A stretch of 52,609 nucleotides of DNA from Spirochaetaceae bacterium (GTDB lineage Bacteria > Spirochaetota > Spirochaetia > Treponematales > Rectinemataceae), in NCBI GenBank assembly GCA_026418115.1, contig JAOABY010000010.1, positions 1 through 52,609 on the forward strand. Direction: 5' to 3'. Of this stretch, positions 12,369 to 52,609 are shown in pieces. The position numbers and the translations under genes were made by a program. The number at the start of each line of letters is the position of its first letter. Positions within the stretch are counted from its first letter, which is position 1. The notes under the pieces were generated by a model. It saw only the letters and a program-made list of their open reading frames with translations. It made no database searches and had not been told where the DNA came from.

Positions 12369-12384
12369 TGGCACGATCCTTGCT
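12369..12384 (+). promoter_or_regulatory. Sigma-54 (-24/-12) promoter
   Basis: TGGCACG-ATCC-TTGCT matches the RpoN consensus TGGCACG-N4-TTGCW at every position. The GG of the -24 element and the GC of the -12 element are 10 nt apart, as required. The transcript should start near 12395, 20 nt before the ATG of the sigma factor gene, leaving room for the GAAGGAGG ribosome binding site. Confidence 0.85.
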
Positions 12385-12414
12385 TATTTCCTTGTGGAGA
12401 GAAGGAGGATCTAC

Positions 12415-46456: not shown

Positions 46457-46999
46457 ATGAAAGTCAGAAGTACAGTAATGGTCGTGCTGTTCTTGGTGGC
46501 TTCAACCGCATTTGCGGTCGATGTGGATGGGAGGATTGGCACAGGCGAATATGCCAGGGAGGCGAGTTTCGACAACGGCAATTTCAAAGTTTTCTGGACC
46601 ATCGATCAGGACAGAATCTTCATGGCCCTCGATGTCAAGGCGAATGGATGGATTTCGATTGGTTTTGAGCCATCGAGAGTCATGGCAGATGCCGATATGA
46701 TTTTCGGCATGGTCCCACCATCAGGCCCAGTGGAAGCTATTGATGCATTTTCTACGGGAACCTTTGGGCCGCACCCGCCAGATGCAAATCTGGGCGGTAA
46801 AAATGACGTCTTGCAGTTCGCGGGAACCAGGAACGGGGACCGGATCATATTCGAGTTCGTCCGTCTGCTCGACACCGGCGACAGGTATGACAAGAAGATC
46901 CCAGCCACAGGCAAACTGAAGATTATCTGGGCGTATGGCCCGAACTTCACCTTTAGCGCAAAGCATCTCAAGGCTGGGGCGGAGACACTGGATCTGTAG
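46457..46999 (+). CDS. Exported DOMON-domain protein
   Basis: A 180-residue protein with a signal peptide (VMVVLFLVASTAFA) followed by one DOMON domain. The domain shows FKVFWTIDQDRIFMALDVKANGW-type strands, then WISIGFEPS and IIFEFVRLLDTGD, consistent with a haem- or sugar-binding beta sandwich. Sequence after the start gives a short mature protein without other domains. It stands alone between the M20 peptidase and the CRISPR locus, with its own promoter. Ligand is unknown; periplasmic redox or binding function is likely for the family. Confidence 0.85.
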   Translation: MKVRSTVMVVLFLVASTAFAVDVDGRIGTGEYAREASFDNGNFKVFWTIDQDRIFMALDVKANGWISIGFEPSRVMADADMIFGMVPPSGPVEAIDAFSTGTFGPHPPDANLGGKNDVLQFAGTRNGDRIIFEFVRLLDTGDRYDKKIPATGKLKIIWAYGPNFTFSAKHLKAGAETLDL

Positions 47000-47079
47000 A
47001 GACTGACTCTTAGGTTTCTGAAAGCTGTGGCCCATCGTACGAGATCGAGTATGCTTAAAATTTGAAATTGATACCAACT

Positions 47080-47173
47080 AAAAAAGAAGAGGCCGTCCCG
47101 TAGGGCGGCCTTCTTTCATCTGGTGGCTCCAAGAGCCGTGTTGGCGGGTGCTGATCCCATTTCTTGGTAAGCT
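47080..47173 (-). ncRNA. tracrRNA of the type II-C CRISPR-Cas9 system
   Basis: Minus-strand RNA of about 94 nt. From the predicted start (47173) it reads AGCTTACCAAGAAATGGG and continues as an anti-repeat to 47140; compared with the array repeat it has a substitution and small insertions (ATGGGATC for ATGAGATC, AGCACCCGCC for AGCCCGC). A nexus hairpin follows (GGCTC-TTG-GAGCC, 47137-47125), then a bulged terminator stem (47114-47086) and a run of six U (47085-47080). This order is the normal tracrRNA plan: anti-repeat, nexus, 3' hairpin. It pairs with the array transcript and guides RNase III processing and Cas9 loading. It lies divergent to cas9. Confidence 0.9.
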
Positions 47174-47189
47174 GATATCATGATAAAAT
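47161..47189 (+). promoter_or_regulatory. Candidate cas9 promoter, overlapping the tracrRNA promoter
   Basis: TAAAAT (47184-47189) has a poor TTCTTG (47161-47166) 17 nt upstream, within the anti-repeat sequence. The start would be near 47196. Its -10 box overlaps the tracrRNA -10 box by two bases. Confidence 0.35.
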
Positions 47190-47208
47190 GTGATGGAGAG
47201 TTCGTCAA
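47180..47208 (-). promoter_or_regulatory. Sigma-70 promoter of tracrRNA
   Basis: On the minus strand TTGACG (47208-47203) and TATCAT (47185-47180) are spaced by exactly 17 nt. The start near 47173 coincides with the first anti-repeat base. Confidence 0.8.
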
Positions 47209-47227
47209 GAATCATTTTATAAAATGG
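47183..47227. repeat. Inverted repeat and palindrome in the cas9 leader
   Basis: ATAAAATG (47183-47190) is repeated inverted as CATTTTAT (47213-47220), and the second copy is part of the 12-bp perfect palindrome ATTTTATAAAAT (47214-47225). The elements flank the tracrRNA -35 box and end at the cas9 ribosome binding site. Confidence 0.6.
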
Positions 47228-47235
47228 AGGCCTGT

Positions 47236-50200
47236 ATGGTGCGTTTTGCATTCGACATTGGAACGAATTCCATTGGCTGGGCTGTTCTGGAGCCAAACGA
47301 AGATGACTCCAAAGTAGAAATTCTTGACATGGGAGTCAGAATTTTCAGCGATGGCAGAGAACCGTCTAAATCAGGTCAGCCAGGTGAGCCACTCAATCAG
47401 ACTCGTCGCCAGAAGCGAATGATGCGAAGACAGCTTGAACGAAAAAAACGTCGCAAAAAGGCCATGTATAATTTTCTGATTCGCTCTGGGTATGCACCAG
47501 CAGACGCAGATGCGCATAACAAATGGGTAATGCTTGATCCCTACAGGCTCAGGGCTGAGGCGCTGATTCGGCCACTTGATAAACTGGAACTGGGAAGAGT
47601 CATGATGCAATTGGCTGCCCGAAGGGGTTTCAAATCGAACAGAAAAACTGATACTGGCAAGGATGCTTCAGAATACAAGCAAAAGATAAGTGCTTTCGAA
47701 CAGGAATTAGGAAACCGTACCCTTGGGCAGTACCTGTGGCAGAAAAAGCAGGCAATAGAAGCGTCATTCAGAAAGAGCAATGATTCTCAACCTGCCGTTG
47801 TCAATGAGAGAGTGAGGTTCAGACCTGGAACTTCCTACTATCCCAATAGAGCAATGTATGAATATGAATTTCATGCTATTCAGTCGGTCCAGGCGAATGC
47901 GCATCCGGATTTTGACTGGGGCAAGGCGTATAGGATTATTTTCTTCCAGCGCCCATTAAAAAGGCCTCAACGTGGTTACTGCACTTTTTTTGAAAATGAA
48001 TATCGCGCCTACCTTGCCCAGCCCTCAGCTCAAATCTTCAAAGCACTTCAGGATATCAATAATCTCGAGTACTCGATCGATCATCCTGTTGAACTTACTG
48101 CTGAACAGAAGAAGGTTATCTTTTCCTATCTTCAGCAGAAAGGCTCTATTTCGTTCAACAAGGTGCGCAGTCTGCTCGGGTTGCCAGATGAAGCTGTCTT
48201 TAATCTGGAAAAAGGCACCAAGGATAAGCTGGAAGGAAGTACCACCGATATTCAATTTGCAAAATATATTAAGCAATGGCTGAACATTGATCTAGCGGAC
48301 CGGGATACCCTCGTTGAGACCTTCATAGTTGAGGAAAATGAAGACTATATTCTAGAGGTCTTCAAGCGCTTCGGTATAACAGACACAGAAACAAAACAAG
48401 CCATTGAAAAAATAGACCTTATGGTCGGAGTCGGATCGCTTTCAGCGAGGTTCATGCGGGAATGTTCGGCCATAATGAGTGCTGAGTGGATAAAATATGA
48501 TAAAGCAGTAGAAAAAATGGGATTCCATCATTACGGCACCATGAAGAGCGACGTATACGAAAAACTCCCCTATTATGGCCAGGTATTGAAATATGCTACC
48601 ATTCCGCCTGCCAGATCGAACCAGCACAATCTTACTGGAGGTGCGGCAGAAGAAGCGCAATATGGGAAAATTTCCAACCCCACAGTGCATATTGCGTTGA
48701 ACCAATTGAGAAAACTGTGCAATAAGCTCATTGAAAAACATCATAATAAACCTGACGAAATAGTGGTTGAGGTGGCAACTGAACTCAAACTGGGCAGAGA
48801 GAAAATAAGACAGATCATTCAGGAACAGAACAAAAACAGAAAAGAAAATGAGGATATCAAGGCCGTAATAAGAAATATTCTACAGATCCCTGATGGAATT
48901 GAAATAAGCAGTACAGATGTGCTCAAGTTCCGTTTGTGGAAAGAGCTCGGCACTAATTCTGCAGCCAGACATTGCATGTATTGTGGCAATGTCATAAGCG
49001 CACATCAGCTTTTCAATGGAGAAGCGGAGATCGAGCATATCCTGCCCTTTTCCAGGACACTGCGCAACAATCGCAATAATCTGACGATAGCACACAAGAA
49101 ATGTAATGCAGCAAAGGGAAATAGAACGCCTTATGAGGCATTTGGCCATAGCCCGCCAGGTTATGCATGGAGCGAAATTGAAGCCCGTGTTATGGATGTT
49201 TTCAAATATAATTTTGCAAAGAAAAACAACTTCCTGAAAAAAGACCTGGAACAGGAATTAGCTGTAGATAGCAAATTTCTTGAAAGCCAGCTGACGGATA
49301 CTGCATTTATTGCCAAAGCAACCAGAGAATTCCTGGCCTGTCTCTATCCTTCAAGCAATGGGTTACCATCACCTGCGGTTCGAGTTGTTCCTGGCAGGCT
49401 GACCTCTCTGCTTCGCTCGAAATGGGGTCTGAATGATATTTTAAGCTCACAGTATGACGAAAAAAACAGAGCTGACCACAGACATCACGCTATTGATGCG
49501 CTGGTAATCGGGCTTACGACTAGAAGCATCCTGCAGCGATTTGCAACCGCAAATGCACGTGGCTATTCTGATCGGATTCTTCCTCCCCAGTTGCCCATCA
49601 ACAGATTGCAGCTGGAACAGAAATTGCAGAACATGCTGATTTCAATCAAGCCTGAGCATGGGCTCGGCGGCGGCCTGTTTGATGAGACTGCATATGGGTT
49701 TGATTATTCACCTGAGGATCCAGATAACAAGCCAAAGGAATTCTTTGTCCGCAAGCCAGTAGAATCGCTTACATGGAATATCATCGATGCAGATCTCATA
49801 GTAAGCCCGCAGACTCGTTCGAGAATCAATGCATTCCTTAATGAACGTAACCTGAACTCTAAAAATTCTAATAATGACAACAAGAAACTTGCGACGGCAA
49901 TGCAGGAATTCAGTTCTCTGACAGGAATCAAGGCTGTACGAATCAGAGCCAAGAATTCAGAAGGTTACAAACTGCTTCTCCCTGGCAGAAATGGCAGGAG
50001 AGGTCACAAGGCATATCCCCAAGGTGATATCCTGTTTGTTGATATCTGGAGAATTCCACAAAAAGGGGGCAAGGAATATTCATTCAAGGGAGTATATGTA
50101 TGCAGAGCTGATGTTCACACGCAGAAGGGCGAATTTCATACAGAACGACCTCACCCGGCAGCAAAATTCATGATGAGATTATTCAAGAACGATATATTGG

Positions 50201-50469
50201 CACTGGAATTCCCTGATAGAACAGTATTAGCAAGGATCGCAGGTTTTAGTACAACAAATGACAGAATCGACCTGCGCCCCTTGCATGCCAGTGGTGATAT
50301 CAAAACCTGGATCGAACAGACCAACAGCAGATATCGGGACCCCTTCTGGAAGCCAATCAATTCATTGCAGAACTTCATATCTCTTGATGTTCTTGTAAAG
50401 AAAAACAAAGACATGCAGATAAAACATGTGCATATAAGTATAGATGGTAGGCTAATATGCCGAAAATAG
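47236..50469 (+). CDS. cas9: CRISPR-associated endonuclease Cas9, type II-C
   Basis: RNA-guided DNA endonuclease of 1077 residues, the compact type II-C size. The ATG at 47236 is preferred over 47224 because GGAGG (47226-47230) sits inside the longer frame, 5 nt before it. RuvC-I has the catalytic Asp7 in FDIGTNSIGWAVLE. The Arg-rich bridge helix is TRRQKRMMRRQLERKKRRKK. RuvC-II carries Glu in EIVVEVATELK (about 510). The HNH domain (about 578-635) has CMYCGN, EIEHILPFSRT (catalytic His) and NNLTIAHKKCNAAKGN. RuvC-III has DHRHHAIDALVIGL (about 750). The PAM-interacting domain is the last 250 residues. All catalytic residues are present, so it should be active. Confidence 0.98.
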   Translation: MVRFAFDIGTNSIGWAVLEPNEDDSKVEILDMGVRIFSDGREPSKSGQPGEPLNQTRRQKRMMRRQLERKKRRKKAMYNFLIRSGYAPADADAHNKWVMLDPYRLRAEALIRPLDKLELGRVMMQLAARRGFKSNRKTDTGKDASEYKQKISAFEQELGNRTLGQYLWQKKQAIEASFRKSNDSQPAVVNERVRFRPGTSYYPNRAMYEYEFHAIQSVQANAHPDFDWGKAYRIIFFQRPLKRPQRGYCTFFENEYRAYLAQPSAQIFKALQDINNLEYSIDHPVELTAEQKKVIFSYLQQKGSISFNKVRSLLGLPDEAVFNLEKGTKDKLEGSTTDIQFAKYIKQWLNIDLADRDTLVETFIVEENEDYILEVFKRFGITDTETKQAIEKIDLMVGVGSLSARFMRECSAIMSAEWIKYDKAVEKMGFHHYGTMKSDVYEKLPYYGQVLKYATIPPARSNQHNLTGGAAEEAQYGKISNPTVHIALNQLRKLCNKLIEKHHNKPDEIVVEVATELKLGREKIRQIIQEQNKNRKENEDIKAVIRNILQIPDGIEISSTDVLKFRLWKELGTNSAARHCMYCGNVISAHQLFNGEAEIEHILPFSRTLRNNRNNLTIAHKKCNAAKGNRTPYEAFGHSPPGYAWSEIEARVMDVFKYNFAKKNNFLKKDLEQELAVDSKFLESQLTDTAFIAKATREFLACLYPSSNGLPSPAVRVVPGRLTSLLRSKWGLNDILSSQYDEKNRADHRHHAIDALVIGLTTRSILQRFATANARGYSDRILPPQLPINRLQLEQKLQNMLISIKPEHGLGGGLFDETAYGFDYSPEDPDNKPKEFFVRKPVESLTWNIIDADLIVSPQTRSRINAFLNERNLNSKNSNNDNKKLATAMQEFSSLTGIKAVRIRAKNSEGYKLLLPGRNGRRGHKAYPQGDILFVDIWRIPQKGGKEYSFKGVYVCRADVHTQKGEFHTERPHPAAKFMMRLFKNDILALEFPDRTVLARIAGFSTTNDRIDLRPLHASGDIKTWIEQTNSRYRDPFWKPINSLQNFISLDVLVKKNKDMQIKHVHISIDGRLICRK

Positions 50470-50473
50470 AAAT

Positions 50474-51403
50474 GTGATTGGTGGCGTTGTCGAGATTGCT
50501 GAATCAGATCGCTGCCTCAGGACTGAGCGTGGTTTTCTGGTCGTAGAATCGACAGGAAAGGATCGCTCAGTCCTTGCACAAATAGATTATGATCAATTTG
50601 ATGCTCTTATCTGTTCCAACACAGGTTTTCTGATAACCGGTCCTCTTCTGGCAATGCTGGCCGAGAAGAATAAATTCTTTATTGTATGTGGCCGCAATTA
50701 CAATCCTTTGGCTGTTTTAGTCCCGCTGAGCGATAATTTTGAAAGTATTCGAAGAATACAAAGTCAGTTGCATGCCAGCCTGCCTTTAAAGAAAAGATTA
50801 TGGCAGAAACTGGTTCAGGAAAAACTGAGAAATCAGGCAGCCCTACTCTTTTCAATCGGAAAGGAAGAGACCGCTACTAAAATTGAACATCTGGCATTCA
50901 AGGTTCTTTCGGGCGACTCGGATAACAAGGAGGCATACGCTGCAAGGTTGTATTGGCCTGCTCTCTTTGGCAACACCTTTTTACGTTCCAATGAAGAGGA
51001 TCCTGTTAATGCATTTCTGAATTATGGATATGCTATTCTGAGGAGTTGCATCTGCAGAGCGATTGTCGGGTACGGTCTTCTGACGATGTTTGGCGTGCAT
51101 CATGCAAATCTTAGAAACTATTTTGCTTTAGCTGATGATATTCTGGAGCCTTTTCGCCCTCTAGTAGACCGTTGTGTCTATAGTCTTATTCAAACAGGTA
51201 AATCAAACCTTGATCCGGATGCAAAAAGGATCTTATGCAGCCTGTTGATTCAGGATGTAGCTATGGAAGGCCAAACCATGCCGTTGACCAATGCAATACG
51301 GCACACTGTAGGAACACTGGTTTTATCATATGAGCAGAAGAAGGTATTGCTATGCCTTCCCGGAATCATGGACAGAAAGCCAAGACTCATGAAGAATTCC
51401 TAA
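50474..51403 (+). CDS. cas1: CRISPR-associated integrase Cas1
   Basis: Spacer-integrase subunit, 309 residues. It starts with GTG at 50474, 4 nt after the cas9 stop, without a clear ribosome binding site, so it is likely translated by coupling. The N-terminal beta domain (GGVVEIAESDRCLRTERGFL) precedes the helical catalytic domain, with Glu in NKEAYAARLYWPALFG, His in TMFGVHHANLRNYF and Asp/Glu in ADDILEPFRPLVD. These are the expected metal ligands. With Cas2 it inserts new 30-bp spacers. Confidence 0.96.
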   Translation: MIGGVVEIAESDRCLRTERGFLVVESTGKDRSVLAQIDYDQFDALICSNTGFLITGPLLAMLAEKNKFFIVCGRNYNPLAVLVPLSDNFESIRRIQSQLHASLPLKKRLWQKLVQEKLRNQAALLFSIGKEETATKIEHLAFKVLSGDSDNKEAYAARLYWPALFGNTFLRSNEEDPVNAFLNYGYAILRSCICRAIVGYGLLTMFGVHHANLRNYFALADDILEPFRPLVDRCVYSLIQTGKSNLDPDAKRILCSLLIQDVAMEGQTMPLTNAIRHTVGTLVLSYEQKKVLLCLPGIMDRKPRLMKNS

Positions 51404-51723
51404 GCGGATATAGGCTTATGTGGGCTATTGTCATTTTCGATCTGCCAGTAATTACAAAAGCGGATAGAAAAGAAGCCTCAAAATTCCGAAAGGACCTGCT
51501 GGACAAGGGCTTTCAGATGGTACAGCTTTCTGTGTATTTCAAGCTTCTTTCAGGTGTTGAAGAACTGGAGACCATCGAAAGATACATAGAAAGTATCTTG
51601 CCCAGGAAAGGAAAGGTTGAGATAATTCATATTACAGACAGGCAGTATGAAGATATTAAGAGTTTTTATGGAAATGTTCGAGAATCGCCGAAAAAATCCT
51701 ACACGCAACTCCAACTTTTCTAG
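51352..51723 (+). CDS. cas2: CRISPR-associated protein Cas2
   Basis: Structural partner of Cas1 in spacer integration, 123 residues. It overlaps the end of cas1 by 52 nt; the ATG at 51352 keeps the conserved GYRLMWAIVIFDLPV start, which extends upstream of the alternative Met in RLMW (51418), so the longer start is favoured. The ferredoxin-like fold shows KFRKDLLDKGFQMVQLSVYFK and KVEIIHITDRQYEDI. The end (YTQLQLF) is typical of type II Cas2. No cas4 or csn2 follows, which supports subtype II-C. Confidence 0.95.
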   Translation: MPSRNHGQKAKTHEEFLSGYRLMWAIVIFDLPVITKADRKEASKFRKDLLDKGFQMVQLSVYFKLLSGVEELETIERYIESILPRKGKVEIIHITDRQYEDIKSFYGNVRESPKKSYTQLQLF

Positions 51724-51740: not shown

Positions 51741-51791
51741 AGTGCAGAGACCCTGTTAAATCGTTTCAGAATAACAGATTGTCTCTGCACT
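51741..51791. repeat. Nested inverted repeat touching the CRISPR array
   Basis: AGTGCAGAGAC (51741-51751) pairs with GTCTCTGCACT (51781-51791) as a perfect 11-bp stem; inside it CTGTTA (51753-51758) pairs with TAACAG (51772-51777). The right arm ends on the base before the first repeat. It is at the trailer end if the array is read on the minus strand. There is no T-run. Confidence 0.8.
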
Positions 51792-52609
51792 AATTCAGCT
51801 TACCAAGAAATGAGATCAGCCCGCAACACCTTACAGACTTGTCAAGAATAATTTTCAAATTCAGCTTACCAAGAAATGAGATCAGCCCGCAACGCGAGCA
51901 TATAAACACGTTTCTCATCCGGTAATTCAGCTTACCAAGAAATGAGATCAGCCCGCAACCGATCATCCGCATCAGCCACAGAAACAGCAAATTCAGCTTA
52001 CCAAGAAATGAGATCAGCCCGCAACGAAACAGTTTCAGGACAAGCCGTGACAGCAAATTCAGCTTACCAAGAAATGAGATCAGCCCGCAACCCGAGCCGT
52101 TATCGACTACCACCATGTCGGAATTCAGCTTACCAAGAAATGAGATCAGCCCGCAACCCGCAGAGGACGCTTTTTTTCGCCTTGACGAATTCAGCTTACC
52201 AAGAAATGAGATCAGCCCGCAACTGCCGCCTATTGTCAGTTTAACTTCAAGCTAATTCAGCTTACCAAGAAATGAGATCAGCCCGCAACAAGGCCGCGCT
52301 GTGGAAGATCCTCGATGCGAATTCAGCTTACCAAGAAATGAGATCAGCCCGCAACTCACCATGCAGTCTTGGAATCAGCGTGTATAATTCAGCTTACCAA
52401 GAAATGAGATCAGCCCGCAACTGAGCTTGCGGAGCGAAATCGACAACTTGAAATTCAGCTTACCAAGAAATGAGATCAGCCCGCAACCAAGATCCAGCAC
52501 AGCGAGCTGATCGTCGAAATTCAGCTTACCAAGAAATGAGATCAGCCCGCAACGCCACCCCTCGGCCACTCAACGAGGCTGAGAATTCAGCTTACCAAGA
52601 AATGAGATC
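51792..52609 (-). CRISPR. CRISPR array, 13 repeats (last partial), type II-C
   Basis: Thirteen copies of a 36-nt repeat start every 66 nt from 51792 (51792, 51858, 51924 and so on to 52584); the last is cut by the window end after 26 nt. On the plus strand the repeat begins AATTCAGCTTACC and ends ATCAGCCCGCAAC; the crRNA strand begins GTTGCGGG. All twelve spacers are exactly 30 nt and all complete repeats are identical. The tracrRNA strand implies that pre-crRNA is made from the minus strand, so the leader and newest spacers lie to the right of the window. Several spacers (for example 52290-52319) look like coding sequence of phage type, but sources are unknown. Confidence 0.97.

What the first reader, a model, noticed from the sequence alone, without database searches (positions are those of the whole stretch)
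47080..47208. tracrRNA gene with anti-repeat starting at its own +1, back-to-back with cas9
The minus-strand promoter TTGACG-N17-TATCAT sets the start at the first base of the anti-repeat, so almost no 5' extra sequence is made. The degenerate repeat (47140-47175), nexus and terminator follow in order. The scaffold would be short, about 94 nt, with a bulged repeat:anti-repeat duplex.
Basis: seen in the sequence. Interest (0 to 1): 0.75.

Follow-up and report, generated by a model that had tools for sequence, protein, structure and literature searches.

The report
Ordinary type II-C tracrRNA gene
This is the gene for the helper RNA (tracrRNA) of a standard type II-C CRISPR-Cas9 immune system in a spirochaete; its promoter ends right where the CRISPR-pairing part begins, a layout that related bacteria share, so the sequence is read correctly but is not surprising.

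Summary
On the minus strand, TTGACG-N17-TATCAT (47208-47180) predicts a start at A47173. A 36-nt anti-repeat (47175-47140), a small nexus hairpin and a U-run terminator ending at 47080 follow, divergent from cas9 (ATG 47236). The anti-repeat is 96% complementary over 26 nt to the 36-nt repeats of the array at 51792-52609, and co-folding gives a long duplex with small bulges on the tracrRNA side only. Only three promoters this good occur in 52.6 kb on both strands. The locus is cas9-cas1-cas2-array without csn2 or cas4: type II-C, in a Spirochaetota MAG.

The flagged feature is not peculiar to this locus. In 18 spirochaete loci with a cas9 relative, the anti-repeat lies divergently upstream of cas9; in 17 a TTGACA-like promoter puts the predicted +1 inside the anti-repeat (position 4-12, usually 7). 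Several proteobacterial II-C loci give 0-3. Published II-C loci have the same plan (EHCas9). Repeat and anti-repeat co-vary with the nearest relative.

Verdict: a real, ordinary new member of a known kind. One weak oddity: the cas2-proximal spacer matches the tracrRNA -35/cas9 leader (14/15), but PAM-distally, with no such trend elsewhere.

The parts
47203..47208 (-). -35 hexamer TTGACG of the tracrRNA promoter
   Evidence: sequence; scan
47180..47185 (-). -10 hexamer TATCAT of the tracrRNA promoter (part of the palindrome TATCATGATA, 47176-47185)
   Evidence: sequence; scan
47080..47173 (-). predicted tracrRNA, 94 nt, +1 at A47173
   Evidence: promoter/terminator positions and co-fold; start site predicted only
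47140..47175 (-). anti-repeat, complementary to the crRNA repeat
   Evidence: inverted-repeat pairs I1-I12, I15; co-fold
47125..47137 (-). nexus-like hairpin GGCUC-UUG-GAGCC
   Evidence: fold; equivalent hairpins in most relatives
47080..47116 (-). terminator hairpin plus U-run
   Evidence: fold
47236..50469 (+). cas9, 1077 aa (GGAGG 47226-47230 before ATG 47236; alternative ATG at 47224)
   Evidence: TIGR01865 E=1.5e-163; HNH and RuvC_III Pfam domains; conserved D7, E512, H601, H748, D754
50474..51403 (+). cas1 (type II form)
   Evidence: TIGR03639 E=1.3e-77
51352..51723 (+). cas2
   Evidence: TIGR01573 E=2.1e-17
51792..52609 (-). CRISPR array, 36-nt repeats and 30-nt spacers: 12 full repeats plus a partial one cut by the contig end; crRNA strand is minus, as the anti-repeat dictates

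Best explanation
It is the tracrRNA gene of a type II-C CRISPR-Cas9 system. Sigma-70 RNA polymerase starts a roughly 94-nt RNA at about 47173, so its 5' end is the anti-repeat itself. The anti-repeat pairs along almost all of a 36-nt repeat of the pre-crRNA; RNase III can cut that duplex, and the nexus and terminator hairpins dock the guide on Cas9 for target cleavage. Because no 5' extension is made, there is no upstream segment that could act as a built-in guide (as the long tracrRNA form of Streptococcus pyogenes does; own knowledge). Shown here: sequence elements, pairing, conservation of layout, covariation. Inferred: transcription, RNase III processing, Cas9 loading and immunity.
For: Anti-repeat:repeat match and co-fold of -76.8 kcal/mol with the expected duplex, nexus and terminator. 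Promoter 10/12, rare in the window. cas9-cas1-cas2. Same divergent anti-repeat in 18 of 18 spirochaete loci tested and in most named II-C loci. Predicted +1 at repeat-equivalent position 4-12 in 17 of 18, mostly 7, with per-locus shuffle p of 0.003-0.05 in the 16 loci scored before the script stopped. The cognate repeat/anti-repeat pair is the best for 12 of 15 loci. One compensatory pair between this locus and L044 (C-G to U-A), with intact pairing. Literature: same plan in EHCas9 (PMC10281378) and in the inverse repeat with reverse promoter and terminator of Haemophilus parainfluenzae (PMC6199352).
Against: No transcript data. The -10 (TATCAT) is not perfect. The relatives are not independent, so the combined significance is overstated if multiplied. 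L066 puts the start at -11, and L073 (a Treponema with a near-identical anti-repeat copy) lacks a good promoter.
Confidence: 0.95

Rival explanations
1. The segment is transcribed on the plus strand, making a crRNA-like or scaRNA-like RNA (a degenerate repeat in crRNA sense) or a cas9 leader, rather than a tracrRNA.
For: A terminator-like hairpin can be read on the plus strand too. The TATCATGATA palindrome puts a TATCAT on both strands, and the best plus-strand promoters score only 7-7.5 of 12.
Against: The strong promoter is on the minus strand, and the hairpins and U-run follow in tracrRNA order. One search found no other anti-repeat-like segment near the locus and no further repeat copy in the genome, so without this one the system would lack a tracrRNA. 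All relatives have the minus-strand arrangement.
Confidence: 0.03
2. A longer tracrRNA form from a promoter inside cas9 is also made and carries a 5' guide-like extension that regulates cas9, as in Streptococcus pyogenes.
For: Such long forms exist in type II-A (own knowledge).
Against: No minus-strand promoter scores above 8 in the 750 nt upstream. In the relatives the only promoter at or above 9 near the anti-repeat is usually the one abutting it.
Confidence: 0.03
3. The locus is a decayed remnant whose repeat-like segment and promoter are leftovers.
For: The array is cut by the contig end, so completeness cannot be judged.
Against: cas9, cas1 and cas2 are open with catalytic residues conserved. 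12 of 12 full repeats match the 34-nt pattern without mismatch, spacers are all different, and pairing is kept by covariation.
Confidence: 0.02

Closest known systems
EH CRISPR-Cas9 (type II-C, metagenomic, PMC10281378)
   Same: cas9-cas1-cas2 order; ~100-bp tracrRNA gene upstream of cas9 with predicted promoter, anti-repeat and terminator; 36-bp repeats; array cut by the contig end; [quoted passage not shown]
   Different: Different Cas9 and RNA sequences; the EH system has been tested biochemically and its PAM determined, this one has not
Type II-C of Campylobacter jejuni (PMC3656092)
   Same: Minimal cas9-cas1-cas2 system with a short tracrRNA (~74 nt and ~62 nt forms) pairing with the repeat
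   Different: C. jejuni repeats end in an extended -10 (GGTAAAAT) that starts each crRNA; the repeats here end in CTGAATT with no good -10, so crRNAs probably start from a leader promoter beyond the contig end
II-C loci of Treponema and other Spirochaetota (L044-L067, L069-L073, L084, L140)
   Same: Divergent tracrRNA whose -10 abuts the anti-repeat; cas1 and cas2 downstream; array at the far end
   Different: Cas9 63% identical in the nearest (L044), about 34-48% in the others; many Treponema tracrRNAs carry an additional hairpin, and their repeats end in TATAAT

Membership tests
Type II-C CRISPR-Cas | Cas9 with HNH and split RuvC, catalytic residues kept | tested here: met
   TIGR01865, HNH_4 and RuvC_III hits; D7, E512, H601, H748, D754 invariant in an alignment of 14 relatives
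Type II-C CRISPR-Cas | cas1 and cas2 present; neither csn2 nor cas4 in the operon | tested here: met
   cas1 and cas2 directly follow cas9, and the array starts 68 nt after cas2; the part beyond the contig end cannot be seen
Type II-C CRISPR-Cas | tracrRNA with anti-repeat complementary to the array repeat, with terminator | tested here: met
Type II-C CRISPR-Cas | nearest solved Cas9 proteins belong to the ~1050-1150-aa size class that includes II-C enzymes | tested here: met
   best PDB sequence matches are Cas9 chains of 1055-1154 aa; the search did not label their subtype
Type II-C CRISPR-Cas | tracrRNA transcription, RNase III processing, guided cleavage | not testable with these tools
   needs RNA-seq and biochemistry
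II-C with crRNA promoters inside each repeat (Neisseria, Campylobacter type) | -10 element at the 3' end of the repeat | tested here: not met
   repeat ends CTGAATT; best array promoter scores 8/12 and none recurs per repeat; Treponema relatives end in TATAAT
Long-tracrRNA (tracr-L) autoregulated type II | second, upstream tracrRNA promoter giving a 5' guide-like extension | tested here: not met
   no minus-strand promoter above 8/12 upstream of the abutting one

The most novel reading that the evidence does not exclude
The cas2-proximal (presumably oldest) spacer, 51828-51857, shares GTCAAGAATnATTTT (14/15) with 47204-47218, which spans the tracrRNA -35 and the cas9 leader. Its crRNA could therefore base-pair with the tracrRNA/cas9 control region or the cas9 mRNA leader and tune the system's own expression, an RNA-guided autoregulation not described for type II-C as far as I know.
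Probability: 0.03. Interest if true: 0.6.

Novelty: new member of a known kind. Interest (0 to 1): 0.15.

Why it matters
It adds a Cas9 (63% identical to its nearest relative found here) with its guide RNA parts fully readable. The survey suggests a simple rule for spirochaete II-C loci: the tracrRNA -10 abuts the anti-repeat, so the RNA begins with its pairing segment. That helps annotation and single-guide design but changes no concept.

Tried and rejected
Rfam at gathering thresholds finds nothing in the window. A single-protein search for close relatives in named genomes and viral contigs gave none; the alignment search did. Shared or bidirectional cas9/tracrRNA promoter around the TATCATGATA palindrome: plus-strand candidates are weak and relatives place their cas9 promoters elsewhere, so not claimed. 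Spacer 0 as a self-regulating guide: match p=0.002 for this locus over 11 spacers and both strands, but it lies in the PAM-distal half, the seed half does not match, L044 lacks it, and over 57 loci the cas2-proximal spacer ranks at chance (0.49 +/- 0.04; three of the 57 loci, L096, L152 and L157, had badly delimited repeats). No match of spacer 0 elsewhere in the genome or in viral contigs.

Full report
What is there. On the minus strand between the end of the DOMON gene (46457-46999) and cas9 (ATG 47236), the sequence reads TTGACG (47208-47203), 17 nt, TATCAT (47185-47180), GATATC, A47173, then the anti-repeat to 47140, a GGCUC/GAGCC hairpin (47137-47125) and a strong hairpin followed by a U-run ending at 47080. 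The promoter scan finds exactly this site and no other in 46950-47350. Over the 52.6 kb window, both strands, only three sites score 10 or more of 12.

Pairing. The array at 51792 onward has 36-nt repeats (AATTCAGCTTACCAAGAAATGAGATCAGCCCGCAAC on the plus strand) with 30-nt spacers, 12 full copies plus a partial one at the contig end; an own-genome search for the repeat returned only these 12 copies. The anti-repeat complements the minus-strand (crRNA) repeat with a 24-26-bp uninterrupted upper duplex, then a 2-nt and a 1-nt bulge on the tracrRNA side before GUUG:CAAC.

System. Cas9 (1077 aa; TIGR01865 E=1.5e-163), type II Cas1 and Cas2 follow in order. The nearest solved sequences are Cas9 chains of about 1055-1154 aa. 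Relatives found by name are Spirochaetota first (Treponema, Spirochaetales MAGs), then Proteobacteria, and several loci from the window's own order and class are the same contigs as these Treponema and Spirochaetales records, so the host is a Spirochaetota MAG (2.17 Mb, 141 contigs). This placement is by inference from the relatives.

Is the start position special? Of 18 spirochaete loci with a cas9 relative, an array and a detectable anti-repeat, all have the anti-repeat upstream of and divergent from cas9. Placing +1 seven nt after the -10, the predicted start lies at repeat-equivalent position 6 in the window, 7 in ten relatives, 4-12 in six more, and -11 in one (L066). In most loci this is the only site scoring 9 or more near the anti-repeat. 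Dinucleotide shuffles give p=0.003-0.05 for the 16 loci scored before one search stopped with an error at L066; the relatives are related to each other, so these should not be multiplied. Two further named Treponema loci (L072, L140) conform and one (L073) has no good promoter. In proteobacterial II-C loci with a recognisable promoter the start is often at 0 to +3. A tracrRNA that begins with its anti-repeat is thus the usual design in this group, and it agrees with published II-C loci of the same plan (PMC10281378; PMC6199352) and the short tracrRNA of C. jejuni (PMC3656092).

Coevolution. Each repeat pairs best with its own anti-repeat in 12 of 15 loci; for the window the cognate energy is -55.0 against -44.0 for the next best. 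Between the window and L044 one pair changes on both sides (C-G to U-A) and one changes from G-U to G-C.

How it works. Established type II biology supplies the mechanism: tracrRNA pairs with pre-crRNA, RNase III trims the duplex, Cas9 holds the dual guide (PMC5965380). In some II-C systems the repeat itself ends in a promoter (PMC3656092). The repeats here end in CTGAATT and no promoter recurs per repeat, whereas Treponema relatives end in TATAAT. In this lineage the crRNAs probably come from a leader promoter and depend on processing; this is inference, because the leader lies beyond the contig end. L044's leader has a candidate promoter with a TAAAAT -10 whose start would lie 29 nt before its first repeat.

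A side lead, tested. The cas2-proximal spacer shares 14 of 15 nt with 47204-47218, its only match of that strength in 105 kb of sequence (p=0.002). The match is in the PAM-distal half of the guide, the seed half does not match, the nearest relative lacks it, and terminal spacers in 57 loci show no tendency of this kind. It is most likely chance.

Verdict. Observation confirmed, interpretation supported, novelty low: a new member of a known kind.

Noticed in passing
51828-51857 versus 47204-47218: The cas2-proximal spacer matches the tracrRNA -35/cas9 leader at 14 of 15 nt (PAM-distal half); p=0.002 for this locus, not seen as a trend in other loci.
   Followed up: yes
L044:6148-6175 and 12382-12409: A perfect 28-nt direct repeat flanks the whole tracrRNA-cas9-cas1-cas2-array cassette of the nearest relative, as if the cassette had been inserted as a unit.
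   Followed up: no
51792-52609 and L044 array: Repeats end in CTGAATT instead of the TATAAT-like -10 that ends the repeats of Treponema relatives, suggesting loss of the in-repeat crRNA promoters in this lineage.
   Followed up: partly
51741-51791: An 11-bp perfect inverted repeat (AGTGCAGAGAC...GTCTCTGCACT, 29-nt loop) sits between cas2 and the first repeat, possibly stopping array read-through.
   Followed up: no
L044:12311-12326: A 16-bp perfect palindrome ATCCGAACGTTCGGAT abuts the leader-end repeat of the array.
   Followed up: no
L062 and L063, upstream of cas9: The tracrRNA lies 668 and 363 nt from cas9 instead of 57-164 nt in the other loci, so something was inserted or lost between them.
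   Followed up: no
47176-47185: The tracrRNA -10 is part of a perfect palindrome, TATCATGATA, so a -10-like TATCAT also faces cas9; the matching plus-strand -35 is poor.
   Followed up: partly
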